From NCBI RefSeq assembly GCF_041146795.1, contig NC_135184.1, forward strand, positions 5,717,467 through 5,781,466: a DNA stretch of 64,000 bases, written 5' to 3'. The stretch is from Maylandia zebra. Taxonomy: Eukaryota > Chordata > Actinopteri > Cichliformes > Cichlidae. Below the pieces are notes generated by a model. It saw only the letters and a list, made by a program, of their open reading frames with translations, was not told the DNA's origin and did no database searches. The translations under genes and the position numbers were made by a program. Position 1 is the stretch's first letter. Every line of letters starts with the position of its first letter. Of this stretch, positions 11,392-56,578 are shown piece by piece.

Positions 11392-13038
11392 CTATTTGAG
11401 CTTAATCAACTCAGCAGTGTCTCCAATTCGCCAAAGCCAAATTCCAGCATAGAGCGGCTGAGTGAATGTGGTCTGGACTCTGTGGAGGAGAGTCATGGTT
11501 TCAGAGACGCTGTAGAAGGACAAAATACCTGCTCTGTGATCCAGGTACACTCCTACTCTGGAGGAACGAGGACCTGAGACAGGAGTTTGGATGTTGTTGT
11601 ACCGAAATGTATAACTGTTGTTGTTACAATCTAATGCCCAAGATTTGTCATTACGTCCAAATAAACATTCACTCCATCCTTTTCTGCTGATATTCTTGTA
11701 TGCGACTGCTACATAAACTCTCCCTCTCCACTCCACCTCCCAGTAACAACGTCCAGTCAGACTCTCTCTACTCAGGACCTGTTCATATCCAGTAAATCTG
11801 TCTGGATGATCAGAATAAGACTGTTGTTGTTTCATAAATGTTGCTTTTCTGTTCCCCTCTGATAATAACAGCTCTTTGTATGCTGTGTTTGGATCCAGTG
11901 TGATTTCACATGAATATTTTAAGAATTCAGCTCTGGTCTTTGGCTCTGGTTGTGACAGTAAAACATCCACTTCAGTGACTGTCAGTGAGATGTTTGTCCA
12001 TTCCTCTCTCAGAATGTCCTGTAGTTTATCTCTGACCTCTGACACAGCTGCTGTCACATCCTCAAAGTAGCTCAGAGGACGGATATTGATGCTGGATGAG
12101 TCTGTAGACTCACTGAGTGCTGACAGTGAGGGGTAGTTGTGTAGAAACTGGATGTGATCCTCTGTGTGTGAGAGCTGCTTCAGCTCAGCATCTTTCCTCT
12201 TCAGCTCAGTGATCTCCTGCTCCAGCTTCTCCTGAAGCTCTTTGACTCGACTCACTTCAGTTTCCTGCTGGGATCTGATCTGCTGCTTCACATCAGAGCT
12301 TCTTTTCTGGATGAGATGGATCAGCTCAGTGAAGATCTTCTCACTGTGCTCCACTGTTTGATCAGCAGACTGATTGATGGCCTCCACCTCCTGTTGAAGC
12401 AGCTTCACATCTTTCTCTCTGTCCTGGATTCTCTGCTGGATGTTTTGTCGACTCACCTCCAGCTCTCTCTGCCTCTCAGTCCTTTCTGCTGCAGCTGAGA
12501 CTGTGTCGTGGCCTTTATGTTCATCCACAGAGCAGAGATAACAGATACTCTGCTGATCAGTACGGCAGAACATCTTCATCACCTCATCATGACGAGAGCA
12601 GATGTTCTCCTGGAGCTTCTTGGAGGGCTCCACCAGCTTGTGTTTCTTTAATGGAGCCACATCATAATGAGGCTGAAGGTGTTTCTCACAGTAAGATGCC
12701 AGACAGAATAAACAGGACTTGAATGCTTTCATTTTTCTTCCAGTGCAGACATCACAGGCCACATCTTCAGGTCCAGCATAGCAGTGATCAGCAGGAGCAG
12801 TTTGGAGTCCAGTCTTCTTCAGCTCCTCCACTAAATCTGCTAACATGGTGTTTTTCATCAGGACAGGCCTCGCTGTGAAAGTCCTCCGGCACTGAGGGCA
12901 GCTGTAGATTTTCTTCTTTTCCTCTTCATCCCAGAAGCTTTTAATACAGTTCATGCAGTAGCTGTGTCCACAGGGAATAGTCACCGGATCCTTCAGTAGA
13001 TCCAAACAGACTGAACAGCAGATTTTTGTTTGATCCAT
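11392..13038 (-). CDS. TRIM-1: finTRIM/TRIM16-like RING E3 ubiquitin ligase (548 aa)
   Basis: A single-exon gene encoding RING, B-box 1, B-box 2, coiled coil and PRY/SPRY. The first RING cysteines lie in CCSVC, and all eight C3HC4 ligands are present, as are the zinc ligands of both B-boxes. The other three copies start at an ATG three codons upstream; here that codon is GTG (13045-13047), so translation probably starts at the ATG at 13036-13038, giving MDQTK. SPRY patches unique to this copy include AYKE, GYEQ, RKGWSECLFGR and the C-terminal GIWLWRIGDTAELIKLK. Family knowledge: RING-TRIM proteins transfer ubiquitin, dimerise through the coiled coil and recognise targets with SPRY loops; finTRIMs are fish-specific and linked to antiviral defence. 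The actual target is unknown. Confidence 0.92.
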   Translation of the reverse strand: MDQTKICCSVCLDLLKDPVTIPCGHSYCMNCIKSFWDEEEKKKIYSCPQCRRTFTARPVLMKNTMLADLVEELKKTGLQTAPADHCYAGPEDVACDVCTGRKMKAFKSCLFCLASYCEKHLQPHYDVAPLKKHKLVEPSKKLQENICSRHDEVMKMFCRTDQQSICYLCSVDEHKGHDTVSAAAERTERQRELEVSRQNIQQRIQDREKDVKLLQQEVEAINQSADQTVEHSEKIFTELIHLIQKRSSDVKQQIRSQQETEVSRVKELQEKLEQEITELKRKDAELKQLSHTEDHIQFLHNYPSLSALSESTDSSSINIRPLSYFEDVTAAVSEVRDKLQDILREEWTNISLTVTEVDVLLSQPEPKTRAEFLKYSCEITLDPNTAYKELLLSEGNRKATFMKQQQSYSDHPDRFTGYEQVLSRESLTGRCYWEVEWRGRVYVAVAYKNISRKGWSECLFGRNDKSWALDCNNNSYTFRYNNIQTPVSGPRSSRVGVYLDHRAGILSFYSVSETMTLLHRVQTTFTQPLYAGIWLWRIGDTAELIKLK

Positions 13039-13047
13039 TTGATTCAC

Positions 13048-14698: not shown

Positions 14699-14735
<37 letters not shown>

Positions 14736-14816
14736 TGAGACAGTGTCCTTCGCCCTGCCAGGCTAAGTAAACAGTCTTCCAGCCAACCCAGGTGGCCTTG
14801 CATGGAATGGGGGGAA
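14231..14816 (-). mobile_element. LINE 3'-end fragment with (GT)n
   Basis: Begins with a CAGAATCAGAATACTTCATT tail and the ATCCCGAAGG motif that mark LINE 3' ends in fish genomes, read here on the minus strand. A (GT)n tract lies at about 14700-14734. No coding part remains. Confidence 0.5.
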
Positions 14817-14826
14817 CAGTCTAAAC

Positions 14827-20639: not shown

Positions 20640-22304
20640 CTATTTCACTTTAGTCAACTCAGCTGTGGCTCCATATTTATAGTAAACCATCAGTCCAGCA
20701 TAGAGCGGCTGAGTGAATGTGGTCTGGACTCTGTGGAGGAGAGTCATGGTTTCAGAGACGCTGTAGAAGGACAAAATACCTGCTCTGTGATCCAGGTACA
20801 CTCCTACTCTGGAGGAACGAGGACCTGAGACAGGAGTTTGGATGTTGTTGTACCAAAATGTATAAATGTTGTTGTAACACTCTAATGACCAAGATTTGTC
20901 ATTATGTCCAAATCCACATTCATTACCCAATCCTTCTCTGCTGATATTCTTGTATGCGACTGCTACATCAACTCTCCCTCTCCACTCCACCTCCCAGTAA
21001 CAACGTCCAGTCAGACTCTCTCTACTCAGGACCTGAAACCAGTCAGTGAATCTGTCTGGATGATGGTAATAACACTGTTGTTCATTCATTACTGTTGCTT
21101 TTCTGTTCCCCTCTGATAATAACAGCCATGTGTGTGATGTGTTTGGATCCAGTGTGATTTCACATGAATATTTTAAGAATCCAGCTCTGGTCTTTGGCTC
21201 TGGTGGATCTGACAGTAAAACATCCACTTCAGTGACTGTCAGTGAGATGTTTGTCCATTCCTCTCTCAGAATGTCCTGTAGTTTATCTCTGACCTCTGAC
21301 ACAGCTGCTGTCACATCCTCAAAGTAGCTCAGAGGACGGATATTGATGCTGGATGAGTCTGTAGACTCACTGAGTGCTGACAGTGAGGGGTAGTTGTGTA
21401 GAAACTGGATGTGATCCTCTGTGTGTGAGAGCTGCTTCAGCTCAGCATCTTTCCTCTTCAGCTCAGTGATCTCCTGCTCCAGCTTCTCCTGAAGCTCTTT
21501 GACTCGACTCACTTCAGTTTCCTGCTGGGATCTGATCTGCTGCTTCACATCAGAGCTTCTTTTCTGGATGAGATGGATCAGCTCAGTGAAGATCTTCTCA
21601 CTGTGCTCCACTGTTTGATCAGCAGACTGATTGATGGCCTCCACCTCCTGTTGAAGCAGCTTCACATCTTTCTCTCTGTCCTGGATTCTCTGCTGGATGT
21701 TTTGTCGACTCACCTCCAGCTCTCTCTGCCTCTCAGTCCTTTCTGCTGCAGCTGAGACTGTGTCGTGGCCTTTATGTTCATCCACAGAGCAGAGATAACA
21801 GATACTCTGCTGATCAGTACGGCAGAACATCTTCATCACCTCATCATGACGAGAGCAGATGTTCTCCTGGAGCTTCTTGGAGGGCTCCACCAGCTTGTGT
21901 TTCTTTAACTGAGCTGCTACATAATGAGGCTGAAGGTGTTTCTCACAGTAAGATGTCAAACACACAAAACAGGACTTGAATGCTTTCATTTTTCTTCCAG
22001 TGCAGACATCACAGGCCACATCTTCAGGTCCAGCATAGCAGTGATCAGCAGGAGCAGCTTGGAGTCCAGTCTTCTTCAGCTCCTCCACTAAATCTGCTAA
22101 CATGGTGTTTTTCTCCAGGACAGGCCTCGCTGTGAAAGTCCTCCGGCACTGAGGGCAGCTGTAGATTTTCTTCTTTTCCTCTTCATCCCAGAAGCTTTTA
22201 ATACAGTTCATGCAGTAGCTGTGTCCACAGGGAATAGTCACCGGATCCTTCAGTAGATCCAAACAGACTGAACAGCAGAATTTTGTTTGATCCATTTGAT
22301 TCAT
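20640..22304 (-). CDS. TRIM-2: finTRIM/TRIM16-like RING E3 ubiquitin ligase (554 aa)
   Basis: Intact single exon from ATG at 22302-22304. RING ligands are C11, C14, C26, H28, C31, C34, C50 and C53. B-box 1 is at about 98-127, and B-box 2 ligands are C150, H153, C161, D164, C169, C172, H177 and H180. The coiled coil lies at about 188-300, and PRY/SPRY at about 375-554. Residues 182-364 appear identical in all four copies. Copy-specific residues cluster at 113-133 (HYVAAQL), 390-393 (SHTW), 405-414, 421-423 (DWF), 444-446, 456-464 (REGLGNECG), 475-485 and 536-553 (ending ELTKVK). A RING ligase role with SPRY-defined target choice is inferred from the family. Confidence 0.93.
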   Translation of the reverse strand: MNQMDQTKFCCSVCLDLLKDPVTIPCGHSYCMNCIKSFWDEEEKKKIYSCPQCRRTFTARPVLEKNTMLADLVEELKKTGLQAAPADHCYAGPEDVACDVCTGRKMKAFKSCFVCLTSYCEKHLQPHYVAAQLKKHKLVEPSKKLQENICSRHDEVMKMFCRTDQQSICYLCSVDEHKGHDTVSAAAERTERQRELEVSRQNIQQRIQDREKDVKLLQQEVEAINQSADQTVEHSEKIFTELIHLIQKRSSDVKQQIRSQQETEVSRVKELQEKLEQEITELKRKDAELKQLSHTEDHIQFLHNYPSLSALSESTDSSSINIRPLSYFEDVTAAVSEVRDKLQDILREEWTNISLTVTEVDVLLSDPPEPKTRAGFLKYSCEITLDPNTSHTWLLLSEGNRKATVMNEQQCYYHHPDRFTDWFQVLSRESLTGRCYWEVEWRGRVDVAVAYKNISREGLGNECGFGHNDKSWSLECYNNIYTFWYNNIQTPVSGPRSSRVGVYLDHRAGILSFYSVSETMTLLHRVQTTFTQPLYAGLMVYYKYGATAELTKVK

Positions 22305-28200: not shown

Positions 28201-30027
28201 AATTTCTTTTCCCAGGCAAACATTAAACAGCAGCAGCTGGAAAACTGGAAAACCTAAAGCCAAATAATCAATAAAACATAACAAACTTTTGTATGAGTGA
28301 GTATTGATAAACTGAGCATAATTAAACCTCAGTGAAACCACATATAAGTTCTGGTAACTGGCACATATTTATGTTTAATATGTTGTTTTATATTTTGATC
28401 AGTTTCAGGTGTTTGTGCGACTGTGTTAACCATCAGTAAAACCACATATAAATCACACTTCTGTGTTTAACAATTACAACACTTGATGCTGTTTTTCTGA
28501 TTCAGGATTATGTGTGTAATGAGTTGGCCACACAGTTCTTATCTTTCTGCTTCAGACACACACAAAACTGCCGAGGTTGAAGCTTCAGTCTCTTTCTACC
28601 CCAGGTCTCACCACATTTCCAAAATGTAAACTCTGAGTCTCATAAGAAATGTGGTTCAAAAAGATGTGCTGATCTATGAATGCATCCTTACTGAAAGCTA
28701 AAGATGTCCAGCAGACAAAAACAGCAGCTGAATGAACAGTTATCATGAGCGAGTGTACAAACACTATCACAGGAAATAACAGAAATAAACTGTAGTTTCC
28801 ATTTATACCTGTAGTATTTTTTCAGCTCCATGTCATCTTCCAATATGTCAAAATATGATTTCATTGTATCTTAAACAAATACAAACTTCTTTCTTCCCCC
28901 CAGAGAGCCAACAGTTTACTATCAGAACTGAGGCTGATCATTAACAGGGAGCAGCAGGTAACAAGGTCATCAGCAGTGGAGGAAAGTATGGAAGTAATAC
29001 TCAGCTTCATATTTGAAGATACTCGAGTATCTTAGCTGCAGGTCTGGAACAATGGTTTTATTTCCTTTCCCATTAAACATCTCACACAGCCCCTCATCTG
29101 TGACCCTTAGCAAACCCACTGGATATCTACCTGAACATAAAGGAGATCAGATCAGTTCCATCTAGACCAGCTGTAACAGGAAAATGCTGCTTACACTTTG
29201 AAGCATCACTTTCAGTTTGTCATATAAGACAATATATCAGATTGAGGCATTATTTTCCTGCAGTGAGTAAATCTACTTTGTACTTTACTCTTTTCTTTTA
29301 GGTAAAGGCTCTAAACAGTACTTGTACACTGTGGAAATCCCATAAGAACGTCTCCTGAACTCTGAAAAATAACAAAACAAAGACTAAAAGGAGGTCATGG
29401 GTGCTGATGATGATGCTGATGATGATGAGGAGTAGCATGCATTTAAAAAGTGACTGATGTCCTAGAATACAACAGAACAGTGTCTCTACAAACTTATGAA
29501 AACATGACAGTCTTGCATTAGTTTGTATTCTTATGATTTCAAAAAACGAGGGAAAAATCTCCTTGAAATGCACAATTCCTTTTTGTTATTTCTTAGTGTG
29601 TGACGTATTTTATTGGCTTTATGATTGGTGCAAACAGTTTCCTGATTCATAATGGAAATAGATTTTAGACACAGGAGGAACACGCAGTGATCAGCAGGAG
29701 CAGCTTGGAGTCCAGTCTTCTTCACACTGAGGAGGAACATATATGCAGGAACAGTTGTCATAACTGTTACAACCACCAGATGGCGAAAGAGTCCCACTGC
29801 AACTTTAAGCCATGAAGGATGTGTCTTGATGTTTGTTTGTGATAAATCTGCTTTATGTGAGTCTTTTTCAGAAAGTAACAGTAATATGTCTGATTATATG
29901 TCTTTAATCAGTAAAGTCTCGCTTTGCTAGAAATCAATAAATAAATAAATAATTGTAAACATGCAGCTGTATGTTAGAAGTCAAAGGGTCCTTAAGTCTT
30001 CTGTAAATTGACGGGGATCAAATGAAG
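28201..30027. repeat. Spacer module A, copy 2
   Basis: Matches 4871-6698 closely and passes without interruption into the TRIM-3 module at 30028, showing the site before LINE insertion. It contains the TRIM linker relic at about 29686-29726 and a shorter GAT run near 29402-29432. No gene. Confidence 0.85.
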
Positions 30028-31348: not shown

Positions 31349-33010
31349 CTATTTGAGCTTAATCAACTCAGCAGTGGCTCCATAATTATAAGGCAACAGT
31401 CCAGCATAGAGCGGCTGAGTGAATGTGGTCTGGACTCTGTGGAGGAGAGTCATGGTTTCAGAGACGCTGTAGAAGGACAAAATACCTGCTCTGTGATCCA
31501 GGTACACTCCTACTCTGGAGGAACGAGGACCTGAGACACGAGTTTGGATGTTGTTGTGCCAAAATGTATAAATGTTGTTGTAAAAATTTAATGACCAAGA
31601 TTTGTCATTATGTCCAAATACACATTCACTCCCTGCTCTGCTGATATTCTTGTAAGCGACTGCCACACGAACTCCTTCCCCTCTCCACTCCACCTCCCAG
31701 TAACAACGTCCAGTCAGACTCTCTCTACTCAGGACCTGCCACCATCTAGTGAATCTGTCTGGATGATCAGAATAAGACTGTTGTTGTTTCACTGCTGTTG
31801 CTTTTCTGTTCCCCTCTGATAATAACAGCTGTGTGTTTGCTGTGTTTGGATCCAGTGTGATTTCACATGAATATTTTAAGAATCCAGCTCTGGTCTTTGG
31901 CTCTGCTTGTGGATCTGACAGTAAAACATCCACTTCAGTGACTGTCAGTGAGATGTTTGTCCATTCCTCTCTCAGAATGTCCTGTAGTTTATCTCTAACC
32001 TCTGACACAGCTGCTGTCACATCCTCAAAGTAGCTCAGAGGACGGATATTGATGCTGGATGAGTCTGTAGACTCACTGAGTGCTGACAGTGAGGGGTAGT
32101 TGTGTAGAAACTGGATGTGATCCTCTGTGTGTGAGAGCTGCTTCAGCTCAGCATCTTTCCTCTTCAGCTCAGTGATCTCCTGCTCCAGCTTCTCCTGAAG
32201 CTCTTTGACTCGACTCACTTCAGTTTCCTGCTGGGATCTGATCTGCTGCTTCACATCAGAGCTTCTTTTCTGGATGAGATGGATCAGCTCAGTGAAGATC
32301 TTCTCACTGTGCTCCACTGTTTGATCAGCAGACTGATTGATGGCCTCCACCTCCTGTTGAAGCAGCTTCACATCTTTCTCTCTGTCCTGGATTCTCTGCT
32401 GGATGTTTTGTCGACTCACCTCCAGCTCTCTCTGCCTCTCAGTCCTTTCTGCTGCAGCTGAGACTGTGTCGTGGCCTTTATGTTCATCCACAGAGCAGAG
32501 ATAACAGATACTCTGCTGATCAGTACGGCAGAACATCTTCATCACCTCATCATGACGAGAGCAGATGTTCTCCTGGAGCTTCTTGGAGGGCTCCACCAGC
32601 TTGTGTTTCTTGAATGTAGGTGAATCATAATGAGGCTGAAGGTGTTTCTCACAGTAAGATGCCAGACAGACTAAACAGGACTTGAAGGCTTTCATTTTTC
32701 TTCCAGTGCAGAAATCACAGGCCACATCTTCAGGTCCAGCATAGCAGTGATCAGCAGGAGCAACTTGGAGTCCAGTCTTCTTCAGCTCCTCCACTAAATC
32801 TGCTAACATGGTGTTTTTCTCCAGGACAGGCCTCGCTGTGAAAGTCCTCCGGCACTGAGGGCAGCTGTAGATTTTCTTCTTTTCCTCTTCATCCCAGAAG
32901 CTTTTAATACAGTTCATGCAGTAGCTGTGTCCACAGGGAATAGTCACCGGATCCTTCAGTAGATCCAAACAGACTGAACAGCAGAATTTTGTTTGATCCA
33001 TTTGATTCAT
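31349..33010 (-). CDS. TRIM-3: finTRIM/TRIM16-like RING E3 ubiquitin ligase (553 aa)
   Basis: Intact single exon from ATG at 33008-33010, with the same order of RING, two B-boxes, coiled coil and PRY/SPRY and all zinc ligands kept. The B-box1-B-box2 linker reads HYDSPTFKKHKL, shared only with TRIM-4. B-box 1 has CDFC where the others have CDVC. SPRY-specific patches are ANTQ, AVKQQQ, RWWQV, an extra residue in GEGVR, RAGSECVFGH, LNFYNNIYTFWH, QTRVSG and the short C-terminal LLPYNYGATAEL. Both other complete units in this neighbourhood and the Pim gene lie on the same strand. Ubiquitin ligase activity is inferred from the intact RING; the target is unknown. Confidence 0.93.
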   Translation of the reverse strand: MNQMDQTKFCCSVCLDLLKDPVTIPCGHSYCMNCIKSFWDEEEKKKIYSCPQCRRTFTARPVLEKNTMLADLVEELKKTGLQVAPADHCYAGPEDVACDFCTGRKMKAFKSCLVCLASYCEKHLQPHYDSPTFKKHKLVEPSKKLQENICSRHDEVMKMFCRTDQQSICYLCSVDEHKGHDTVSAAAERTERQRELEVSRQNIQQRIQDREKDVKLLQQEVEAINQSADQTVEHSEKIFTELIHLIQKRSSDVKQQIRSQQETEVSRVKELQEKLEQEITELKRKDAELKQLSHTEDHIQFLHNYPSLSALSESTDSSSINIRPLSYFEDVTAAVSEVRDKLQDILREEWTNISLTVTEVDVLLSDPQAEPKTRAGFLKYSCEITLDPNTANTQLLLSEGNRKATAVKQQQSYSDHPDRFTRWWQVLSRESLTGRCYWEVEWRGEGVRVAVAYKNISRAGSECVFGHNDKSWSLNFYNNIYTFWHNNIQTRVSGPRSSRVGVYLDHRAGILSFYSVSETMTLLHRVQTTFTQPLYAGLLPYNYGATAELIKLK

Positions 33011-42878: not shown

Positions 42879-45237
42879 TTATCTTAGCCAGGGGTGAAGC
42901 TGGAGCTCCTCCAGTGTTGGGCGCTTCTCCGGGACTAAAGCTAAACATGCGTCCAAGAAATCCCGGCATTCTTGAAAGAAAGAAAAGATCAAAAAGATGA
43001 AGATGATAGTTCTAGTGATCCAAGGCATCAGTGAATCTGGAAGTGTGAAGTTTTCTTACCTGTGGACAGACGCTTTTTGATGCTCAGTTGCTTTGTGAGG
43101 AACCTCGCGGTACTAAAGTATCGTGCATGAAGCGCTTCATACAACACCACTCCCATTTGCCACACCGTGGTGGGTCCACACCTGTAGCAGCTCCTAATGT
43201 ACCACTCGGGAGGGATGTGAAGAGGAGTGCCTAACAAACAGACACAATTGCAATTTCTTCTAAAACAAAAGACACAAATTGTTACATCTGTGAAAAGCAG
43301 GAGCAGAATATGTTACCATAGAAGATGCGATACAGAGATCGCTGCTTAACAAAGCAGCTCAGTCCAAAGTCAATGATGCGAACTCGAGGCACATCTGAGC
43401 CGGTCTCAATCAGAATGTTTGGTCCCTTGATGTCCCGATGAAAGATGTGTTTATCCTCAAGTTCCTTTACAGCATCAACTAGTTGCTTCAGAATGACCTG
43501 GAAAAGATGAAAAACACAATAATGAGTTAATGCTTTTCTGCCTTGATTGAATGCTGTACAGTCTAAGGCTCTCCCAGTCAACCTACCTTGGCCTTGTCCT
43601 CTGTCAAAGTTCTTCCATGTTCTGCTTTGTATTTTTGCAGGTCCACAGCAGGGACAGGTCTCTCCAGCACCAGGATCAGCTCTTTGCCAAGGTCGAACCA
43701 CTCCAGCAAGGACACAGGTGCAGATATTCCCACTGACCCTTCTGCTTCACCTGCAAGTTTAACCATAATGGCCACTTCCACTGAGAGCTTCTTCCCGCTT
43801 TCATCCTGAAATGTTACAACAAAGTGGATGATGAGGAACGCCGCATTCAATCCAGTAATGTAAAACTGATTCAAGTGTTGGACGCTTACCGCCACTTTGC
43901 AGTAGACTTTATTTTTGGGAATGTGTTTGATGGCAACCTAGAAGACACAGAGCATTGGTGAGCATTTCCTCAGTATGACATAATGAAAGGTGGAAACACA
44001 GCAGACGTCTCAGTTTACGATATTATCCATTATCTGCGTTACTGCCTGTCTTACTACCATCATCTGAACACTTACTGGAAAACGATCTTCTATCCGGTAG
44101 CCAGCAAACACTGCTCCGCAGCCTCCTTCTCCGAGCTGGTGCTCCTCCACATATCTGGCTTGGAATTCACCTGAACAGACAAAACAACAAATCTTGTTTT
44201 ATTACAGCTGTGACACAAATTACTCTCCTCTGTAGCCTAAATGTTCCTTTTGCCCTTCCCCTGAATATAAAACCCAAGCTGCTTGCTACTTACGTTTTTG
44301 GTCTGCCACTGATTTTTTGTCCTGGTCCACATTCCTTTTTTTTTTCTTGGGTGACTCTCTGTTGTCTCCCGTGGCCTTTCTTTTGCCATGTTTTGCGCAC
44401 ACCTGTTTGTTGTTCAAGTCTGGAGATGTGGAAAACACCAAAAGCACATCAGCTCACTGGATGATAGACACAAACACTAAACACTAATATCTTAAACCTA
44501 GCAACCACACTTAATCTACCCCCTTATTCAACTAATTAGCCTACCTTTACCAGAGTCCAACAAGGAGGATACTTGCTCCTTGTCACCGCTCATATGGTGG
44601 AGAAGTTTAGCCTTCTTTGCTTTCTTTGTTGTGCCCTCTTCATCTTGCACAACCTTGCGCTTCACTCCTTTGACCACATCTGAGCTGGTGGAAGGACCAG
44701 CCTGCTCAGCGACCCTCCTCCTTTTTATTGGGGTCTTCTTTTCAGGACTGGCCTTTCTTTTAGCAGTCCTGCTCTTACAATCTATAAACGACAACAACAC
44801 AGTGGTGAAAAAGAGTCCCCGACATCAGGACTGGAAGCAGTTTGGCAAAGAATTTGAAATTGCTTTTGCTTAAATTATCACAAGTTTATTCTTGGGATAA
44901 AAAAAACTGACCAGTGTGAATTGATACTAGGTTTACTAAGTCTTACATCTTGATGACACTTGTTGGTCTGTTTTCACTGCTCAGTCCAAGAATAAACCTG
45001 TCACATTATTTTACCAAAAGACAAAGTGCCCCAGTAACCTTTCTTTGATTAGACATCTTGTATTAAAGCTATTTTCAATCAAACATATGATTCAATTGCT
45101 CTAAAAACGATTCACACAGTGTCAACGTTTCTAGGATTTGGATTTTACCAGGATTTGATTTTATTATTTTACTTACCTTGATCTCCTGGATCTTTCTTAT
45201 CTGCCTCAGTCGTAACTTTTCTTGTTTCCTTTTTCAT
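42879..45237 (-). CDS. Pim-like serine/threonine kinase, copy 2, complete nine-exon gene (409 aa predicted)
   Basis: Coding exons on the minus strand: 45177-45237, 44545-44781, 44294-44419, 44076-44170, 43890-43937, 43587-43805, 43317-43497, 43060-43230 and 42879-42970. They total 1230 bases, exactly 410 codons with the TAA at 42879-42881, and the phases agree at all eight junctions. Kinase motifs appear in order: glycine loop LGEGGCGAVFAG, VAIK lysine, hinge LERPVP, catalytic loop HRDIKGPN, DFG (IIDFGLSC), PPEWY in place of APE, VWQMG, and a C-terminal RPTLEELQLHPW. HRD, DFG and the lysine are all present, so activity is expected. The ERPxP hinge, PPEW and V-W-x-x-G are Pim-family traits. 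About 150 N-terminal residues are basic, with bipartite and SV40-like nuclear localisation signals, which mammalian Pim proteins lack. The start is the first ATG in a 61-base first exon; an upstream noncoding exon cannot be excluded. TRIM-3 and TRIM-4 lie on either side on the same strand. Confidence 0.9.
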
Positions 45238-45597
45238 TTTAATTTTTTGAGAACTTTTAAAATAGAAAATGTCACCTTAATGAGTGAATAGTCCTTCAAA
45301 TGTCTGGATGCTTGACTTTTCTAACTAAGCTGTATAAGTCAGTTCTGTAAGTGAGCTTTAAAAGTCAACTCCGGAGACTATGGCAACACAACATAAGAAG
45401 CTTGCCTTTTAGTGACATCACTGACTGCCAGTAAAAGTGTTCCAAGTAGTTTAAAGAAAAACACTCTGGCAGACAAAGCCATAATATTTCATATAATTCA
45501 GTAATTTCACATTAAACTTTCTTTCATTATCCTTTCATTATTTGTTTAAAGACTTGATGTGTGGATGCTACTATGAAGACTTCTAGTTGAGCAAACA

Positions 45598-45780
45598 CTA
45601 ATAAACACTGACTAGTTTATCTGAGATAAAATATAACTGACTGCAGCCTTTATTCCATGTGTTTTGTCTGTGAATGCCCCCATGTACACATGTAACCTCC
45701 ACCCACTGCAACACCAATAATGTCCCGGGGCAAAGCGGGGTTTGGTGAACCAGGAGCTGTGCGCAGCCCGTGTCCACCAA
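45598..45780 (-). pseudogene. Fragment of retrotransposon aspartic protease (Gypsy-like), copy 2
   Basis: Duplicate of the fragment at 2167-2349 with the same VDTGCAQ motif and the same truncation. It moved with the segmental duplication rather than by transposition. Confidence 0.5.
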
Positions 45781-46246
45781 AGCCTGGTGTATACCCCCTT
45801 GACACCTTATTAGGATGCTGTACCTCCATGACTGCCTGGCATGCTCTGCTCCTTCTGCCCTGGCAATCAGATGATCCTCAGCCAGGGTGGCTTGCTGGTC
45901 AATGGCAGGGAACCCCTCGGGTGGGCCACTTTGTCCAGCAAACCAATGACTGTAGAAAACATGGATGATCTAACAGTTCTCCAAAAGTACATAAAGTACT
46001 TACCTAAAAAGCAGTTAATGTCATGGTTGCATTTATTTATTGTTATTACATTGTTTTACAGCAGCTAATTAAAAACCATCATCTTAACTACATGTTTTGT
46101 TTTTTTGTTCTTTGTTGTTGTTGTTGTTGTTTTGCAGTTGTCCTGTAGGTGATGGTGTAGCACAGAGACTGAACTAGTGGCTAGCTAACATAAGAAGGAT
46201 GTACTTGAAATGTACTGTACTTGAAACTTGCATCTCATCTTTGCAG

Positions 46247-46286
46247 CGTTCACTTTGAAGAGAATGTCTTTACCAAGGACTCACAG
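46247..46286 (+). pseudogene. Orphan THAP-domain-like exon, copy 2
   Basis: Identical to the exon at 2799-2838, with the same splice-like borders. Its preservation in both copies reflects the recent duplication and does not by itself show function. Confidence 0.4.
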
Positions 46287-47721
46287 GTTAAGTAACTTTA
46301 CAATTGTCATATTACAATATATAATTTTAGAGCATGATTACAGCTCTGCCATCTTGATTGAAAACTAAATACATCTGGAATACGAACAGCTGATCGGATC
46401 GGCAAAGCGTGTTTCTGGAATATTATGTTTTTGTTACTGCAAGCGCTTTTTATGCAATTTTTGCAAAGCTATATGTGGAAGGAAACCGTGACCTAGGACA
46501 AGCTGATGGCATAAGATGTAAGTACAACTCCTCTGGTTTCATATGCAAAAAAATTATTGCGCTAGCTTACGCGGTTCCCGGTTCGACAGGGATTTAAAAA
46601 TAGTTACGCAAAACAGAGCGTGCCCGCTCCGACCGGCTTTAAAGAGTTAAACATGTAACAATCGAATTGCATCTTTCCATTGCCAGCCATCTCATTTTGT
46701 ACAAATCCAGTCAACTCTTCCAAGTTTGTGTATTTTTTAAACCCTTACAAGAATTGAAATGTGTCCCAAATATCTGTATCCCATCAGAGGCAAGTTTCTT
46801 AAAGGAGAGGTAGTAGCTGCTCCACCATAGGACCAGTAGGACCTCCAGCACACAATGAACACTTAATTAACGTTAACACATTTATTAAAACACAATTTTA
46901 AACAATAACCCTTTTCTTTTAGTGTGTTTCAATTTGTTCCTACCGCTCCATTGGAACAGTGTACTATCCAGTAACAGCATCCAGCTGGCAGAAGCATACA
47001 CCTGCAGCAAGGAGAATCTACCAGGCAGGATAGCGCAGCGGAGTCATCAGATGAGGATGATCATGAAGTGGTTCATCCAGCAGGAACAGGATACCAAAAG
47101 GGGAGGGAAAAAACACAGAAAGCATAGTCATGACTAACTCAGTGTCACTAACAGCTCATCTAGCAGTCTTAACATCATAAAGGTACAGGCTGGTCCATAT
47201 AAAAAATATTAACAGAAAAAATAAATGCTGTTAACCAAATTTTCTTAGGCAAAAGCACATAATCTTGATATTTGACCTTGTATCAGCCGCCATATTGGAA
47301 AGGTAGCCAGGTTTCCTTAGCTGCTAGCTTGCTAACAGTCTGCTATCCAGCCCGGTAATAACTTCATTCACGTATTTTACAACATTTAGCTTTCTTCCTT
47401 AACAAAAACATCGCAGTTGTGGATTTGAATCTCGCTGCAACATAATAAGACCCAGAACATTCAATTTGAACATGTGCTGCAAGCTAACTCCCCAGAGGAG
47501 TTCATGCAATGGCCAATGCCTGTCGGATTCGGCTCATGACTTCTCTGTCTAACAACACATTAAAACATCAGTTTCAAGTACAAATGTTTCATAAACTTAT
47601 CTACAGCGGCTCATATTAAATGTACCCAAGTTTCCAGCTGGCAGTGGGCACAAGAACAACACTCCTCATCAGATCAAGGGAGGAAAAGAAAATTCTAGAG
47701 CTGGGCTGGGTGGCTGCTATG

Positions 47722-49750
47722 TAGGGTTGCCAACTCCCTGAAAAATAAATAAGAGACACCTCGTGGCCAGGGCCGGGCAACCCAGTTCACCCTTCCCAGT
47801 GTGGTGAATTTTGTAGCTCTTTTTTTGTGTGTGAAATTATTTTTTAACCATTTGACTTGAATTTGATTTAAGCAGATGCATATTCTTTGTGATATGACCA
47901 TATGGGAAACAAATGATCATTTAGCCATTTATTTTTTAGCTCAAAATGACAACATTAACACAATAAAACAGGTCTCTTTCTTAAACAGAAGCCTGTCATG
48001 CTTAACTTTTGAGAATATAAGTAAATCTTTCTTTAAAAGAACTCTGTCCTGCTTAACTTAAAATTATATAAATTAATAGAAAACAATAGAACGAAAAATA
48101 TTCTTGTAACAGTGCACATATAGTGCATTTAGTACAATTGGCTTCAGTTGAGGTATTATTTCAGCTTTTCTAATGCTAATCAGCTGCTCCTGTTTGTAAA
48201 CCCACTTGTTCCCATGATTACACATCATAACTCATCATCATCATTAATCTATGTATTACTTTTATGTATTAGTCATCTATTTGTTGTAATCATCTATCCT
48301 TGCAGTTGTTTATTACACAAAATAAATTATATTATCACACTTCTGGCCACATAGCGCTGATATTCACTGCACATGCCCATATTAACCTTAACCAGAGGGT
48401 TTGAAAAAACAAACAAACCAGTGTTTACATACCATATCTGCTTCTGCCGTGGCCTGGTGGACAAAAAATTGGTTAAGGGTTCCCCGAGCTTTCACGCCCC
48501 TAATGTTCTTCATGTGCCCACCACTAGAAGCATGCCTATGGAAAAAGTGCGCCGGCACACCACAGTGCAGTGTGCTTTATAGGTGTTATCGTGCATTTTC
48601 CCAGCCAGGTGTTTTCCTTTTCCCATTCCTCCCTGTACTTTTGCAGCCTTTTTTTTCTTTGTCTGAACAAACAAACATTGCTGCGCTAATGCTGGGCTTA
48701 CACTGTGCGATTTTTGGCCCATTTTGAGCCGACTTTTGAGTCGTGCGACCGATTTGGCGATCGGCCCGATTTGGGCCTTCATCGTGCATCGTGTAGTATA
48801 CGTGGGGTAACGAGAAGCGATTAACACCTCACGACCAGCTCCCGATATCAATCGCTCGTGAGCCGCTAACACTGCTCACGCGCAAACACGTAAACGTCGG
48901 TGAAAAAGATGGAGCAGCACGGCTGTGCAGCGTGTGAACTGGACACAAGCGATGGAGGCACAACTTGTAGAACTTTGGAAAGCTCATCCGAGCCTTTTCG
49001 ATGTGGCATCACAAAATTATCACGACCACAACAACCGTGAAAATAGTTGGATTTACATTGCTGCTCAATCACAGCTGCCTGATCATGTTTTTCATTAGCA
49101 ATTTAGCAAAGTTGATGTTGGTGGTGTGCGTGTCTGTGTGAGTGAAAGACAGAGCGAGCGAGCGAGCGACAGATTTTCTGTTATAACCTTCATTTTATGG
49201 ACGCACAGTGTGAGCGCTCAGGTCGCATCAGAGCATCGGGCGGTATAGTGTGAGACCCTGCATCGTGACCTACCAACTTCTAACCCCTGCGCGTCAATCG
49301 TGCAGTTTGAGCAGGAGCTGAATAACGTGACTGAAAAAATCGCACAGTGTCTGCCCAGCTTTACTGCCTAGGTGTACTGTCGTCCGAGACTTGCACCGCA
49401 GTGTCGGCGTTTGTTCCCCTGTTGGCCATGCTTGTTGTTGTGGTCATCTGTTGTCTTCCGGTATTTTCTCCGTAAGCGACCTTTCCTCGACCAATGGGAT
49501 GAGCGGTAATCTGAATTGTCATACTCGAATTGTCATAAGTGTGCTGTCAGCTCATTGGTCACAAAGCAGGAGAGGGGCTGGGAATTATGTTTTCAAACAA
49601 AGCGTTAATTCCATTAACATTTATAGACTACTTTTGATTCTCACTGTATTACGGGACAAAGTGCGTCCCTTATTAGCTCAATACGGGACGTGTACTTTTG
49701 TTTCTAAATACGGGACCATTCCGTTTTTTAAGGGACGGTTGGAAACCCTA
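47722..49750. mobile_element. DNA transposon remnant with both ends
   Basis: The left end TAGGGTTGCCAACTCCC and the reverse complement of the right end (TAGGGTTTCCAACCGTCCC) are similar. No clear target duplication was found and no transposase frame is visible. The interior contains a second inverted-repeat element at 48691-49359. In the other unit only the left ~590 bases persist. Confidence 0.5.
48691..49359. mobile_element. Inverted-repeat element (669 bp), nested
   Basis: Ends GCTGGGCTTACACTGTGCGA and the complement of TCGCACAGTGTCTGCCCAGC match at all but two of about 25 bases. The interior is GC-richer than the surroundings. No transposase. The superfamily is uncertain; flanking duplications are not clear. 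Confidence 0.75.
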
Positions 49751-49921
49751 TCTGCATCACAGGTGACTCCACTCATCCGTCCAACACCTTCTTCAGTTTG
49801 CTGCCATCAGGAAGGAGACTGAACAGCCTTCGGGCCAGAACCAGCAGACTGAGCGACAGCTTCATCCATCAGGCTGTCAGGATGCTGAATTCAATGTGCC
49901 TTTAATACCATCCGGCCCTGT

Positions 49922-50884
49922 ATGCTTCAGGAAAAACTGAACAGGATGGAGGTGGACCCCTGCCTGGTGGCTTGGATCTCCAACTACCTCACCGACAGGC
50001 CACAGTACGTCAGGCTGAAGGACATCGCGTCTGACATTGTGGTCAGCAGCACAGGAGCACCACAGGGAACTGTGCTGTCCCCTCTTCTCTTCACCCTGTA
50101 CACCTCTGACTTCTGCTACAACTCTGAATTATGCCATATTCAGAAGTTTGCAGATGACACAGCCATCATGGGGTGTATCTGGGATGATCAGGAAGAGGAG
50201 TACAGAAGTCTGGTGAGGAACTTTGTCGCATGGAGTCACACAAACCACCTGCAACTCAACACCTCAAAGACCAAGGAACTGGTTGTGGACTTCGGGAGGT
50301 CCAGAGAAGGTCCACTGCCGGTTCAGATAGAGGGGGAGGAGGTGGTCAACAAGTACAAGTACCTCGGGCTGTGGGTGGACAATAAACTGGACTGGTCATG
50401 CAACACAGAGCACCTGTATAAAAAAGCCCAAAGCCGACTGTACTTCCTCAGGAGGCTGAGGTCTTTTAACATCTGCAGGAAGCTCCTGAGGATGTTTTAC
50501 CAGTCGGTGGTTGCTGGAGTACTTTTCTATGCTGTGGTGTGCTGGGGGAGCAGCACAGCAAAGAAGGACTCATCCAGGCTGGAGAAACTGATCAGGAAGG
50601 CTGGCTCTGTGGTCGGCATGAAGCTGGACACTCTGGTGACAGTGGCAGAGAAAAGGACACTAAAAAAACTGCTGGACATTATGAACAATGCTGGGCATCC
50701 TCTGCACACAGTCATTAACAACCAGAAGAGTCTGTTCAGTGACAGGTTGCTTCTCCCCAAGACAAGAACTAACAGACTTAAAAACTCCTTTGTCCCACAC
50801 GCCATCAGACTGTTTAACTCCTCTCTGGAGGGGAGAGGGAGGGGAAACAGGAGGACAAAGGAGGGGGGAACAACTAAGCTGTAG
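49922..50884 (+). pseudogene. LINE reverse transcriptase, C-terminal half (320 codons)
   Basis: Open frame covering RT motifs from the A box onward, including the FADD catalytic box near residue 75, then the RT thumb-like region and C-terminal KTRTNRLKNSFVPHAIRLF. It lacks a natural start because the element is 5'-truncated. Not a cellular gene. Confidence 0.88.
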
Positions 50885-51119: not shown

Positions 51120-51168
<49 letters not shown>

Positions 51169-52006: not shown

Positions 52007-53559
52007 TATAAATCACACTTCTGTGTTTAACAATTACAACACTTGATGCTGTTTTTCTGATTCAGGATTATGTGTGTGATGAGTTGGTCACACAGTTCTT
52101 ATCTTTCTGCTTCACACACACACAAAACTGCCGAGGTTGAAGCTTCAGTCTCTTTCTACCCCAGGTCTCACCACATTTCCAAAATGTAAACTCTGAGTCT
52201 CATAAGAAATGTGGTTCAAAAAGATGTGCTGATCTATGAATGCATCCTTACTGAAAGCTAAAGATGTCCAGCAGACAGAAACAGCAGCTGAATGAACAGT
52301 TATCATGAGCGAGTGTACAAACACGATCACAGGAAATAACAGAAATAAACTGGAGTTTCCATTTATACCTGTAGTATTTTTTCAGCTCCATGTCATCTTC
52401 CAATATGTCAAAATATGATTTCATTGTATCTTAAACAAATACAAACTTCTTTCTTCCCCTCAGAGAGCCAACAGTTTACTATCAGAACTGAGGCTGATCA
52501 TTAACAGGGAGCAGCAGGTAACAAGGTCATCAGCAGTGGAGGAAAGTATGGAAGTAATACTCAGCTTCATATTTGAAGATACTCGAGTATCTTAGCTGCA
52601 GGTCTGGAACAATGGTTTTATTTCCTTTCCCATTAAGCATCTCACACAGCCCCTCATCTGTGACCCTTAGCAAACCCACTGGATATCTACCTGCACATAA
52701 AGGAGATCAGATCAGTTCCATCTAGACCAGCTGTAACAGGAAAATGCTGCTTACACTTTGATGCATCACTTTCAGTTTGTCATATAAGACAATATATCAG
52801 ATTGAGGCATTATTTTCCTGCAGTGAGTAAATCTACTTTGTACTTTACTCTTTTCTTTTAGGTAAAGGCTCTAAACAGTACTTGTACACTGTGGAAATCC
52901 CATAAGAACGTCTCCTGAACTCTGAAAAATAACAAAACAAAGACTAAAAGGAGGTCATGGGTGCTGATGATGATGATGATGATGAGGAGGAGTGACTTAT
53001 GTCCTAGAATACAACAGAACAGTGTCTCTACAAACTTTTGAAAACATGACAGTCTTGCATTAGTTTGTATTGTTATGATTTCAAAAAACGAGGGAAAAAT
53101 CTCCTTGAAATGCACAATTCCTTTTAGTTATTTCTTAGTGTGTGACGTATTTTATTGGCTTTATGATTGGTGCAAACAGTTTCCTGATTCATAATGGAAA
53201 TAGATTTTAGACACAGGAGGAACACGCAGTGATCAGCAGGAGCAGCTTGGAGTCCAGTCTTCTTCACACTGAGGAGGGACATATATGCAGGAACAGTTGT
53301 CATAACTGTTACAACCACCAGATGGCGAAAGAGTCCCACTGCAACTTTAAGCCATGAAGGATGTGTCTTGTGATAAATCTGCTTTATGTGAGTCTTTTTC
53401 AGAGAGTAACAGTAATATGTCTGATTATATGTCTTTAATCAGTAAAGTCTCGCTTTGCTAGAAATAAATAAATAAATAATAAAATTGTAAACATGCAGCT
53501 GTATGTTAGAAGTCAAAGGGTCCTTAAGTCTTCTGTAAATTGACGGGGATCAAATGAAG
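52007..53559. repeat. Spacer module A, copy 3
   Basis: Matches 5117-6698 and 28447-30027. Its first part is missing, replaced by LINE tail sequence. It contains the TRIM linker relic at about 53228-53268 and a GAT run near 52965-52990; a ~17-base stretch around the run seen in copies 1 and 2 is missing. It passes directly into the TRIM-4 module. Confidence 0.85.
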
Positions 53560-54446: not shown

Positions 54447-54452
54447 TTTATT
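54447..54452 (-). terminator. Poly(A) signal AATAAA, TRIM-4
   Basis: Conserved hexamer about 430 bases past the TRIM-4 stop codon. Confidence 0.55.
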
Positions 54453-54880
54453 CACACAATAAAACATCAACACAATATATGAATTCATTCATTAAAATCA
54501 CAGTTTTTCCTCATTTGTTTGATGATTTTGACAAAAACCAAACACAAACACACACACATGGTCTGCCATACTCATGAAGAGAAATGTCAACATTTTTCAA
54601 TACAAATATTCCAGAAAGATTTAGAGGATAGAGAAGTTTACATTTTCATGTGGAGAAATATTTTAGTAAATGAAAATGATGATGAGCAGTGATAGCCTCC
54701 ATAAACAGTCACAGGAAAGATCTCCTTTAAAAACTCAGAAATATCAAGAGAACAACTAGAAGATGTGGAGGTACCACCCATAATGTTTGACTGACAGCTG
54801 ATCTCTGTGCAGAAATGATGGAGAGAAACTAAAATGAAACTAAAACACAGATTTAAACCCACAATATGAAAGACTTCAGT

Positions 54881-56578
54881 CTATTTGAGCTTAATCAACT
54901 CAGCTGTGGCTCCACAATAATCATCATAATGGTAGTAAACCATCAGTCCAGCATAGTGAAGCCAAAGTCCAACATAGAGCGGCTGAGTGAATGTGGTCTG
55001 GACTCTGTGGAGGAGAGTCATGGTTTCAGAGACGCTGTAGAAGGACAAAATACCTGCTCTGTGATCCAGGTACACTCCTACTCTGGAGGAACGAGGACCT
55101 GAGACAGGAGTTTGGATGTTGTTGTACCAAAATGTAAAACTGTTGTTGTTACAATCTAATGACCAAGATTTGTCATTATGTCCAAACAAACATTCATTAC
55201 CACATCCTTCTCTGCTGATATTCTTGTATGCGACTGCTACATAAACTCCTCTCCCTCTCCACTCCACCTCCCAGTAACAACGTCCAGTCAGACTCTCTCT
55301 ACTCAGGACCTGCCGCCATCCAGTGAATCTGTCTGGATGATCAGAATAAGACTGTTGTTGATTCACTGCTTGCGCTTTTCTGTTCCCCTCTGATAATAAC
55401 AGCAGTTTGTTTGCTGTGTTTGGATCCAGTGTGATTTCACATGAATATTTTAAGAATCCAGCTCTGGTCTTTGGCTGTGGTTGTGGCAGTAAAACATCCA
55501 CTTCAGTGACTGTCAGTGAGATGTTTGTCCATTCCTCTCTCAGAATGTCCTGTAGTTTATCTCTGACCTCTGACACAGCTGCTGTCACATCCTCAAAGTA
55601 GCTCAGAGGACGGATATTGATGCTGGATGAGTCTGTAGACTCACTGAGTGCTGACAGTGAGGGGTAGTTGTGTAGAAACTGGATGTGATCCTCTGTGTGT
55701 GAGAGCTGCTTCAGCTCAGCATCTTTCCTCTTCAGCTCAGTGATCTCCTGCTCCAGCTTCTCCTGAAGCTCTTTGACTCGACTCACTTCAGTTTCCTGCT
55801 GGGATCTGATCTGCTGCTTCACATCAGAGCTTCTTTTCTGGATGAGATGGATCAGCTCAGTGAAGATCTTCTCACTGTGCTCCACTGTTTGATCAGCAGA
55901 CTGATTGATGGCCTCCACCTCCTGTTGAAGCAGCTTCACATCTTTCTCTCTGTCCTGGATTCTCTGCTGGATGTTTTGTCGACTCACCTCCAGCTCTCTC
56001 TGCCTCTCAGTCCTTTCTGCTGCAGCTGAGACTGTGATGTGGCCTTTATGTTCATCCACAGAGCAGAGATAACAGATACTCTGCTGATCAGTACGGCAGA
56101 ACATCTTCATCACCTCATCATGACGAGAGCAGATGTTCTCCTGGAGCTTCTTGGAGGGCTCCACCAGCTTGTGTTTCTTGAATGTAGGTGAATCATAATG
56201 AGGCTGAAGGTGTTTCTCACAGTAAGATGCCAGACAGAATAAACAGGACTTGAATGCTTTCATTTTTCTTCCAGTGCAGACATCACAGGCCACATCTTCA
56301 GGTCCAGCATAGCAGTGATCAGCAGGAGCAGCTTGGAGTCCAGTCTTCTTCAGCTCCTCCACTAAATCTGCTAACATGGTGTTTTTCTCCAGGACAGGCC
56401 TCGCTGTGAAAGTCCTCCGGCACTGAGGGCAGCTGTAGATTTTCTTCTTTTCCTCTTCATCCCAGAAGCTTTTAATACAGTTCATGCAGTAGCTGTGTCC
56501 ACAGGGAATAGTCACTGGATCCTTCAGTAGATCCAAACAGACTGAACAGCAGAATTTTGTTTGATCCATTTGATTCAT
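54881..56578 (-). CDS. TRIM-4: finTRIM/TRIM16-like RING E3 ubiquitin ligase (565 aa)
   Basis: Intact single exon from ATG at 56576-56578, the longest of the four. RING, both B-boxes and coiled coil are as in the others; after B-box 2 it has HKGHITV where the others have HKGHDTV (two adjacent base changes, not a zinc ligand). The SPRY is a patchwork: ANKL and AVNQQ resemble TRIM-3, REGCGNEC resembles TRIM-2, and LDCNNNSFTF resembles TRIM-1. The C-terminus is extended in frame, repeating a Y-x-G-L unit (YVGLWLHYAGLMVYYHYDDY). The DNA shows a 21-base insertion at 54956-54976 that repeats a GTCC(A/G)CATA-like unit. Role inferred as for the other copies; the extra loop could change target recognition. 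Confidence 0.93.
   Translation of the reverse strand: MNQMDQTKFCCSVCLDLLKDPVTIPCGHSYCMNCIKSFWDEEEKKKIYSCPQCRRTFTARPVLEKNTMLADLVEELKKTGLQAAPADHCYAGPEDVACDVCTGRKMKAFKSCLFCLASYCEKHLQPHYDSPTFKKHKLVEPSKKLQENICSRHDEVMKMFCRTDQQSICYLCSVDEHKGHITVSAAAERTERQRELEVSRQNIQQRIQDREKDVKLLQQEVEAINQSADQTVEHSEKIFTELIHLIQKRSSDVKQQIRSQQETEVSRVKELQEKLEQEITELKRKDAELKQLSHTEDHIQFLHNYPSLSALSESTDSSSINIRPLSYFEDVTAAVSEVRDKLQDILREEWTNISLTVTEVDVLLPQPQPKTRAGFLKYSCEITLDPNTANKLLLLSEGNRKAQAVNQQQSYSDHPDRFTGWRQVLSRESLTGRCYWEVEWRGRGVYVAVAYKNISREGCGNECLFGHNDKSWSLDCNNNSFTFWYNNIQTPVSGPRSSRVGVYLDHRAGILSFYSVSETMTLLHRVQTTFTQPLYVGLWLHYAGLMVYYHYDDYCGATAELIKLK

What the first reader, a model, noticed from the sequence alone, without database searches (positions are those of the whole stretch)
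11392..56578. Four TRIM paralogs with variation confined to SPRY loops and the B-box linker
Residues 182-364 (the stretch after B-box 2, the coiled coil and the following linker) appear identical in all four proteins. Differences cluster in residues about 113-133 and in eight or so patches between 365 and the C-terminus (TRIM-2 numbering), often several replacements in a row. This is seen in the sequences. Family knowledge: finTRIM B30.2 loops are reported to be diversifying target-binding surfaces. The sharp contrast within one exon implies diversifying selection plus homogenisation of the rest.
Basis: partly seen in the sequence, partly recalled or inferred. Interest (0 to 1): 0.85.

Follow-up and report, generated by a model that had tools for sequence, protein, structure and literature searches.

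The report
Fish TRIM array with shuffled patches
A fish chromosome carries dozens of nearly identical TRIM genes, a family known for antiviral defence, whose middle part seems to be kept the same by copying between genes while small patches elsewhere hold older, shuffled variants, rather like the frame and variable loops of antibodies.

Summary
In detail: in the four TRIM genes, codons 182-364 have no amino-acid difference and one silent one, and change is concentrated in B-box 1 and PRY-SPRY patches. The genes belong to a family with 78 scored matches in this genome, 49 on the window's chromosome; I compared 53. Silent changes are also concentrated in the patches, about 9 times the flanking rate in SPRY patches. 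Short patch haplotypes recur in new combinations and linkage nearly vanishes within 20-40 bp. Eight diverged copies up to about 1.6 Mb away show 15-36% silent divergence in the RING but at most 2% in the coiled coil. Best reading: gene conversion homogenises the coiled-coil core and moves short, old patch variants between copies. Moderate positive selection (omega about 1.5-2.5) acts on SPRY patches; none is seen in the B-box 1 patch (about 0.5-0.8). The kind is known (fish class-IV TRIMs, NLR-B30.2 genes); the base-level resolution and the coiled-coil core look new.

The parts
11392..13038 (-). T1 (g13): intact single-exon RING/B-box1/B-box2/coiled-coil/PRY-SPRY gene; its first ATG is GTG, so it begins 3 codons later than the others
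20640..22304 (-). T2 (g14): intact single-exon TRIM gene used as reference numbering
31349..33010 (-). T3 (g15): intact single-exon TRIM gene
54881..56578 (-). T4 (g16): intact single-exon TRIM gene with an extended C-terminal loop
22143..22277 (-). T2 RING (codons 10-54): codons 1-60 look under purifying selection within the array (pN/pS 0.20) but have 15-36% silent divergence from eight diverged chromosome-18 copies
21954..21977 (-). T2 B-box 1 variable patch, codons 110-117
21906..21920 (-). T2 B-box 1 variable patch, codons 129-133 (between its last two His)
   Evidence: zinc-ligand reading from sequence
21213..21761 (-). T2 coiled coil and linker, codons 182-364: homogenised conversion core
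20643..21197 (-). T2 PRY-SPRY domain, codons 370-554
21126..21134 (-). T2 SPRY variable patch, codons 391-393
21081..21092 (-). T2 SPRY variable patch, codons 405-408
21036..21044 (-). T2 SPRY variable patch, codons 421-423
20967..20975 (-). T2 SPRY variable patch, codons 444-446
20904..20936 (-). T2 SPRY variable patch, codons 457-467
20874..20882 (-). T2 SPRY variable patch, codons 475-477
20667..20693 (-). T2 C-terminal variable patch, codons 538-546
54914..54973 (-). T4 composite C-terminal loop: two V/A-G-L units in tandem; among the 19 array-A copies a 20-nt piece is shared verbatim with T2 only, and pieces of 9 and 15 nt near its end with g04 only, as if recombined in frame

Best explanation
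This is a large germline repertoire of class-IV (RBCC-B30.2) TRIM E3 ligases under concerted evolution. Shown by sequence: tandem arrays of near-identical single-exon genes; a core (about codons 135-364: B-box 2, coiled coil, linker) whose silent sites are nearly identical across chromosome-18 copies with old, diverged ends; patches in B-box 1 and PRY-SPRY with far more silent and replacement change than framework or flanks; patch haplotypes in new combinations; a modest replacement excess in SPRY patches. Inferred from this: gene conversion homogenises the core and exchanges short tracts that carry the patches; the patch variants are older than the array; selection keeps them and so resists homogenisation there; the SPRY patches form a target-binding surface, for example for viral proteins; the shared coiled coil keeps a common dimerisation and effector chassis.
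For: Intact family: 77 of 78 scored matches have no internal stop; 19 of 19 copies read in array A are open. Patches against background: medians 7-16% against 0-2.4%. Silent changes sit in the patches: 25 silent edges in about 53 SPRY-patch silent sites (18 copies) against 54 biallelic sites in 1035 flank columns (16 copies). Homogenised core: eight diverged chromosome-18 copies have RING pS 0.15-0.36 and SPRY-framework pS 0.04-0.16 against array A, but coiled-coil pS 0.001-0.020; 26 of 41 chromosome-18 copies compared are identical over 441 nt of coiled coil, the other 15 differ by 1-9 nt. Those silent sites are not frozen: coiled-coil pS to the chromosome-3 cluster is 0.066. A likely donor type: the 129-nt B-box 1 of g18 is 97, 95, 94 and 93% identical to four other chromosome-18 copies but at most 84% to the typical array copies in the list of 40, while in the RING it matches the array and not three of those four. 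Shuffling: PHI p <= 0.002 (123 informative sites, 18 copies), Sawyer-type fragment test p = 0.005; r2 falls from 0.32 at 1-2 bp to 0.077 at 20-39 bp, null 0.059; 100 of 159 SPRY-patch codon variants of array A occur at the same codon outside it, against 18.7 on average (maximum 32) at permuted codons. Selection: omega 1.5-2.5 in SPRY patches.
Against: Selection within array A alone is marginal (24 silent, 123 replacement edges, p = 0.06) and not seen in B-box 1. Adjacent codons assort almost independently, which conversion explains only if exchange is very frequent; recurrent mutation probably contributes, and multi-base mutations could add to the short-range linkage. Framework variants are also often seen elsewhere in the family (30 of 58). 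A roughly 3-fold higher mutation rate in patches is not excluded (see rivals). Arrays A and B are not independent samples. Structure does not show that the patches form one face. No expression, binding or antiviral data.
Confidence: 0.72

Rival explanations
1. Positive selection alone: recently duplicated genes gained many new amino-acid changes in the patches by point mutation, with the rest held by purifying selection.
For: Omega above 1 in SPRY patches; ORFs intact.
Against: Silent divergence in the SPRY patches (pS about 0.12 within A) is far above the flanks (medians 0-2.4%) and above the silent framework divergence between the chromosome-18 and chromosome-3 clusters (0.07-0.08). Selection on amino acids cannot by itself raise silent divergence. 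Silent sites in the coiled coil are erased too.
Confidence: 0.08
2. A germline mutational hotspot or targeted hypermutation acts on the patches, alone or together with retention of old variants.
For: Both silent and replacement changes are dense in the patches; variable sites by codon position in the four SPRY domains are 28/29/20, near even. Patch/framework pS is 2.8-fold both within the chromosome-3 cluster and between it and array A, as a constant 3-fold multiplier would give.
Against: As sole cause a constant multiplier fails: the same ratio is about 15-fold within A and about 20-fold within B (from; 6- and 17-fold if only SPRY framework is used), unless framework was homogenised there, which is the conversion reading. 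Copies with the same patch amino acid use the same codon in 85-93% of pairs against 46-49% expected. Distance-dependent compatibility points to recombination.
Confidence: 0.1
3. Assembly or polishing artefact: reads misplaced among near-identical copies homogenised the core and mixed the patches.
For: Tandem arrays are hard to assemble; reads cannot be examined here.
Against: The same framework-and-patch plan recurs in three clusters on two chromosomes; the uniform core is cluster-specific (18 fixed coiled-coil differences between A+B and chromosome 3); the reading frames stay open.
Confidence: 0.06
4. The coiled-coil identity reflects constraint on the nucleotide sequence (an RNA or DNA element), not conversion.
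For: Silent sites there are almost invariant among the chromosome-18 copies compared.
Against: The chromosome-3 cluster differs there by pS 0.066 and by pN 0.088 in codons 181-260, while it is itself nearly uniform (pi 0.005).
Confidence: 0.04

Closest known systems
finTRIM (ftr) multigene family of teleosts (PMC2657112; abstract, sections 7 and 8, section 11 part 1, and passages seen)
   Same: Large clustered RBCC-B30.2 family, nearest tetrapod relatives TRIM25 and TRIM16, B30.2 domain with positively selected hypervariable sites; in medaka 47 of 55 such genes are single-exon, as here.
   Different: Zebrafish ftr genes have six exons. PAML there gave omega 2.6-3.0 for 16-18% of B30.2 sites and GARD one breakpoint; here recombination is dense and silent change tracks the patches. 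No ftr sequence was available to test membership.
btr and trim35/hltr multigene families (PMC3137616; abstract, section 5 part 1, section 7 and passages seen)
   Same: Fish class-IV TRIM expansions with positive selection in B30.2, recombination breakpoints in btr.
   Different: The genes here match TRIM25 and TRIM16 best among solved structures, a set that need not hold TRIM39 or TRIM35; no coiled-coil homogenisation is described in the parts seen.
NLR-B30.2 family of zebrafish (PMC4852459; passages seen)
   Same: Gene conversion acts differently on a group-specific domain (NACHT) and on B30.2, with positive selection on B30.2; the authors propose that tracts shorter than the exon could recombine variants.
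   Different: There it is inferred between domains of a multi-domain gene; here it is resolved inside one exon, at patches tens of bp apart, in a TRIM.
Young primate TRIM genes (PMC3228819, passages seen) and TRIM5alpha/TRIM22 (recalled)
   Same: SPRY variable loop 1 under positive selection.
   Different: The young primate set showed one breakpoint and, in the authors' words, no extensive conversion.
MHC and immunoglobulin framework/variable-loop architecture (recalled; named in a PMC4852459 passage)
   Same: Homogeneous frame, diverse contact segments, gene conversion.
   Different: Unrelated proteins; the patches here are in germline paralogs of an E3 ligase.

Membership tests
TRIM, class IV (RBCC-B30.2) | RING, B-box, coiled coil and PRY-SPRY in order | tested here: met
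finTRIM | Groups with ftr genes in RBB and B30.2 trees | not testable with these tools
   No ftr reference sequence was at hand
finTRIM | Nearest tetrapod relatives TRIM25 and TRIM16 | tested here: met
   Best sequence matches in the PDB are TRIM25 and TRIM16; only proteins with solved structures were compared
finTRIM | Exon structure (six exons in zebrafish, mostly one exon in medaka) | tested here: inconclusive
   Whole ORF in one exon in 4 of 4 window genes, as in medaka but not zebrafish (PMC2657112)
finTRIM | B30.2 domain under positive selection | tested here: met
   Omega 1.5-2.5 in SPRY patches by the edge count, marginal in array A alone; weaker than a full codon-model test
Gene-conversion-shaped multigene family (as NLR-B30.2) | Discordant silent divergence between parts of the same gene | tested here: met
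   A against D copies: RING pS 0.248, coiled-coil codons 181-260 pS 0.000
Targeted hypermutation system | Constant elevated mutation rate in target segments | tested here: inconclusive
   Patch/framework pS ratio about 15 within A, 20 within B, 2.8 within C and 2.8 between A and C: fails as sole cause, but a 3-fold rise plus homogenised framework is not excluded

The most novel reading that the evidence does not exclude
The homogenised, cluster-specific coiled coil is itself an adaptation: it lets every paralog of one chromosome cluster pair with every other, giving a combinatorial set of two-headed E3 ligases with mixed SPRY specificities. The chromosome-3 cluster (18 fixed coiled-coil differences from A+B) would be a separate, non-pairing set.
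Probability: 0.15. Interest if true: 0.85.

Novelty: new variant of a known kind. Interest (0 to 1): 0.57.

Why it matters
It separates forces within one exon: homogenising conversion, retention of old variants and positive selection. It shows that the contrast between loops and core, read as dN/dS alone, would have misjudged this family. It also gives a case in which the proposal made for NLR-B30.2 genes, that short conversion tracts recombine recognition patches (PMC4852459, passages), is visible at base resolution. If the common coiled coil permits free pairing, a vertebrate innate repertoire could be combinatorial. In the paper searches made (an open-licence library, mostly listings seen) I saw no report of a homogenised coiled-coil core in a fish TRIM array; that is no proof of absence.

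Tried and rejected
First flank estimate: one search suggested about 5% flank divergence and one search gave 0.16-0.42 changes per site downstream. Both were inflated, because the downstream flank of g01 is cut off by the end of the fetched DNA and that of g12 is diverged (seen). Leaving out g01 and g07 (with and without g12) or also g12, alignable flanks are at 0-2.4%. Under the wrong value I had considered that the patches were merely at the neutral level; that is withdrawn.

Hypermutation was considered seriously, because silent changes are dense in the patches. The ratio argument speaks against it as sole cause only: the ratio within the chromosome-3 cluster equals that between clusters. 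On re-checking I therefore raised this rival from 0.07 to 0.10 and lowered the best explanation from 0.75 to 0.72. Loop-against-strand enrichment was tested and was not significant (p = 0.29, weak model). A search of loci L001-L008 (C3) for donors of the g18 and g02 variants gave nothing. The broken TRIM fragments match only the first 38-70 nt of the B-box 1 queries. Pairwise difference does not depend on distance along the array (SPRY p = 0.36; flank p = 0.91, that one spoiled by g01). Papers: searches; what was seen is stated in Closest known systems; of PMC8698530 (grass carp TRIMs) passages only.

Limits: the patches were defined from array A diversity itself; B and C were scored with that mask. 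Omega is from minimum-spanning edges and Nei-Gojobori counts, not from a codon likelihood model with recombination; over all patches together (B-box 1 and others included) the Nei-Gojobori ratio in A is only 1.0. The 53 copies compared are 19 of array A (g07, almost identical to g01, dropped before most counts) plus 34 fetched singly: 13 and 7, 14. L037, L049, L061 and L062 were outside the group counts. The copies were chosen from the 78 matches by score and position, so they are not a random sample. The 78 is a lower bound (2028 candidates, 78 scored), and a few of them are slightly shorter than the query. The Fisher tests use edge counts and rounded site numbers carried over.
Full report
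OBSERVATION. The four minus-strand ORFs exist as described and carry RING, B-box, TRIM coiled-coil, PRY and SPRY domains. In their codon alignment, codons 182-364 have no amino-acid difference and one silent change; 78 of 567 columns vary, most in B-box 1 and PRY-SPRY. The four units are recent segmental copies, 95-99% identical in the TRIM-unit alignments.

FIRST TEST OF THE INTERPRETATION. Among the four genes, Nei-Gojobori counts in the SPRY part (365-end) give pN 0.083 and pS 0.055, a ratio of 1.5; in codons 113-133 the ratio is 0.93; in the coiled coil pS is 0.004 and pN 0. So silent change is concentrated in the same places as replacement change.

THE WIDER FAMILY. The window lies at C18:5717467-5781466 of a 962-Mb assembly. 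A protein search gave 78 scored matches, nearly all full-length. By my count 28 lie at C18:5.46-5.83 Mb (array A and its edges), 21 at C18:4.10-4.99 Mb, 28 on C3 at 19.6-22.0 Mb and 1 on C5; one of 78 has an internal stop. I read 19 array-A copies, all open, and 34 others. Group B is 12 copies of C18:4.36-4.61 Mb, group C is 7 copies of chromosome 3, group D is 8 diverged chromosome-18 copies (7 at 4.10-4.68 Mb, 1 at 5.47 Mb), group E is 3 copies at C18:5.46-5.48 Mb.

PATCHES AGAINST BACKGROUND. Over 17 copies, median pairwise differences are 0-1% in the 200 bp upstream, 0.2% in codons 181-360, 0.5-2.4% in the alignable downstream flank, 9.5% in codons 101-135, 7.1% over codons 361-500 and 16% in the last loop; further out (-300 to -200 and beyond +3100 from the ATG) the copies diverge or no longer align (4% and 29%). 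With patches defined by total nucleotide diversity, blind to silent or replacement, SPRY patches have pS 0.125 and pN 0.181, SPRY framework pS 0.020 and pN 0.011; all patches together have a ratio of 1.03 (18 copies, threshold 0.05). A count that avoids path averaging gives 25 silent and 122 replacement single-base edges in SPRY patches (omega 1.48, p = 0.08) and 17 and 28 in B-box 1 (omega 0.48, p = 0.02). Silent edges per silent site are 0.47 in SPRY patches, 0.13 in SPRY framework and 0.008 in the coiled coil, against 54 biallelic sites in 1035 flank columns, 0.052, over 16 copies.

SELECTION. With the mask from array A, SPRY-patch edges are 24 silent/123 replacement in A (omega 1.52, p = 0.06), 9/77 in B (2.56, p = 0.004) and 8/61 in C (2.51, p = 0.011); B and C pooled p = 6.5e-5; all copies in one network 42/205 (1.46, p = 0.023). 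B-box 1 patches give 0.48, 0.77 and 0.64, and 0.46 in one network. A and B are not independent, since their framework differs hardly more between than within (dAB 0.0070, piA 0.0067, piB 0.0046).

SHUFFLING. Patch haplotypes recur in different company: the codons for RWW in patch 421-426 occur in g10, g15 and g17, and one 54-nt haplotype of patch 459-476 in g02, g06 and g09, with different neighbours. PHI is below its shuffles at all five window sizes tested (p <= 0.002); Sawyer-type fragments give p = 0.005 (228 polymorphic sites); r2 is 0.32 at 1-2 bp, 0.15 at 10-19 bp, 0.077 at 20-39 bp, null 0.059, and still slightly above the null to 160 bp. T4's long C-terminal loop holds two V/A-G-L units in tandem, one piece of 20 nt shared only with T2 among the 19 copies.

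CONVERSION OF THE CORE. Between A and the eight D copies, pS is 0.248 in the RING (codons 5-60), 0.048 in 61-100, 0.318 in B-box 1, 0.026 in 135-180, 0.000 in 181-260, 0.008 in 261-340, 0 in 341-364 and 0.093 in selected SPRY framework. Thus copies up to about 1.6 Mb apart, some in the opposite orientation, have old ends and a young middle. Of 41 chromosome-18 copies (A, B, D and E), 26 are identical over 441 coiled-coil nucleotides and 15 differ by 1-9. The chromosome-3 cluster has its own nearly uniform coiled coil (pi 0.005), with 18 fixed amino-acid differences from A+B and pS 0.066. So the silent sites can change, and in this sample the homogenisation stays within one chromosome.

DONOR TYPE. 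The B-box 1 of g18 (129 nt) is 97, 95, 94 and 93% identical to those of C18:5824016, 5470700, 4666366 and 4652122; 40 of 117 candidates were scored. In codons 101-120 g18 matches these copies (L049-L052) at 93-95% but g17, g19 and g14 at 68-72%, while in codons 1-60 it matches g17, g19 and g14 at 90-100% and L050-L052 at 68-95%; L049, an edge copy of array A, resembles the array there. Direction of transfer is inferred.

OLD POOL OR HYPERMUTATION. SPRY-patch pS is 0.123 within A, 0.064 within B, 0.076 within C and 0.222 between A and C; framework pS (codons 67 onward) is 0.008, 0.003, 0.027 and 0.079, ratios of about 15, 20, 2.8 and 2.8. A constant multiplier with one shared history is thus excluded; an old pool plus ordinary divergence fits A and A-C. 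A 3-fold higher rate in patches combined with homogenised framework in A and B would also fit these four ratios and is not excluded. B-box 1 between A and C (pS 0.47) does not fit the simple sum and suggests still older or foreign variants. Same-amino-acid pairs use the same codon in 91.7% (within A), 93.3% (A-B) and 84.6% (A-C), expected 46-49%; Fst A-C is 0.93 in the coiled coil, 0.78 in framework and 0.40 in patches. Of 159 SPRY-patch codon variants in A, 100 recur at the same codon outside A (permuted mean 18.7); for framework variants the figure is 30 of 58.

STRUCTURE. The SPRY model has mean pLDDT 58.8, with the PRY half unreliable; it aligns with TRIM25- and TRIM16-type domains. Diversity in loops is 0.153 against 0.114 in strands, p = 0.29. 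The claim 'SPRY loops' therefore rests on published TRIM work and is not shown here.

MECHANISM. Shown: array, homogenised core, shuffled patches with raised silent divergence, moderate replacement excess in SPRY patches. Inferred: conversion as the agent, great age of the patch variants, target binding, selection for patch diversity, a common dimer. Whether any copy is expressed is untested. The literature seen places the kind as known: finTRIM B30.2 selection (PMC2657112), btr/hltr (PMC3137616), and conversion acting differently on domains of NLR-B30.2 genes (PMC4852459).

Noticed in passing
window 6360-6400, 29684-29724, 53226-53266 (minus): An exact 41-bp copy of TRIM codons about 76-89 lies alone downstream of several array copies: 11 places in the 264-kb stretch, these three included, at 100%. 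It is preceded by CCTCCTCAG and followed by GTGTTC, so it looks like a tiny exon or exon remnant.
   Followed up: partly
window 60980-61285 (minus); C18:5631263-5631568: Two near-identical broken TRIM fragments covering about the first 113 codons, 83% identical to T2, with frame breaks.
   Followed up: partly
window 7089-10067 (minus) and 49889-50884 (plus): Long reverse-transcriptase-like ORFs of LINE type between TRIM units (named from recall, not searched).
   Followed up: no
window 1-4874 and 43447-48333: A 4.9-kb duplicated block, 97.7% identical, that does not overlap the TRIM exons.
   Followed up: no
window 43282-43746 (minus): ORF with a protein-kinase-like stretch (HRDIKGPNILIE...DFGLS) (kinase name from recall).
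   Followed up: no
C18 and C3 clusters (L029-L048): The coiled coil is nearly uniform within the chromosome-18 copies and within the chromosome-3 copies compared, but has 18 fixed amino-acid differences between A+B and chromosome 3, with pN 0.088 against pS 0.071 in codons 181-260.
   Followed up: partly
whole genome G000: 150 PRY-domain places were scored of 746 candidates, in clusters on C3, C12, C18, C22, C23 and others: a very large PRY-SPRY arsenal beyond this family.
   Followed up: no
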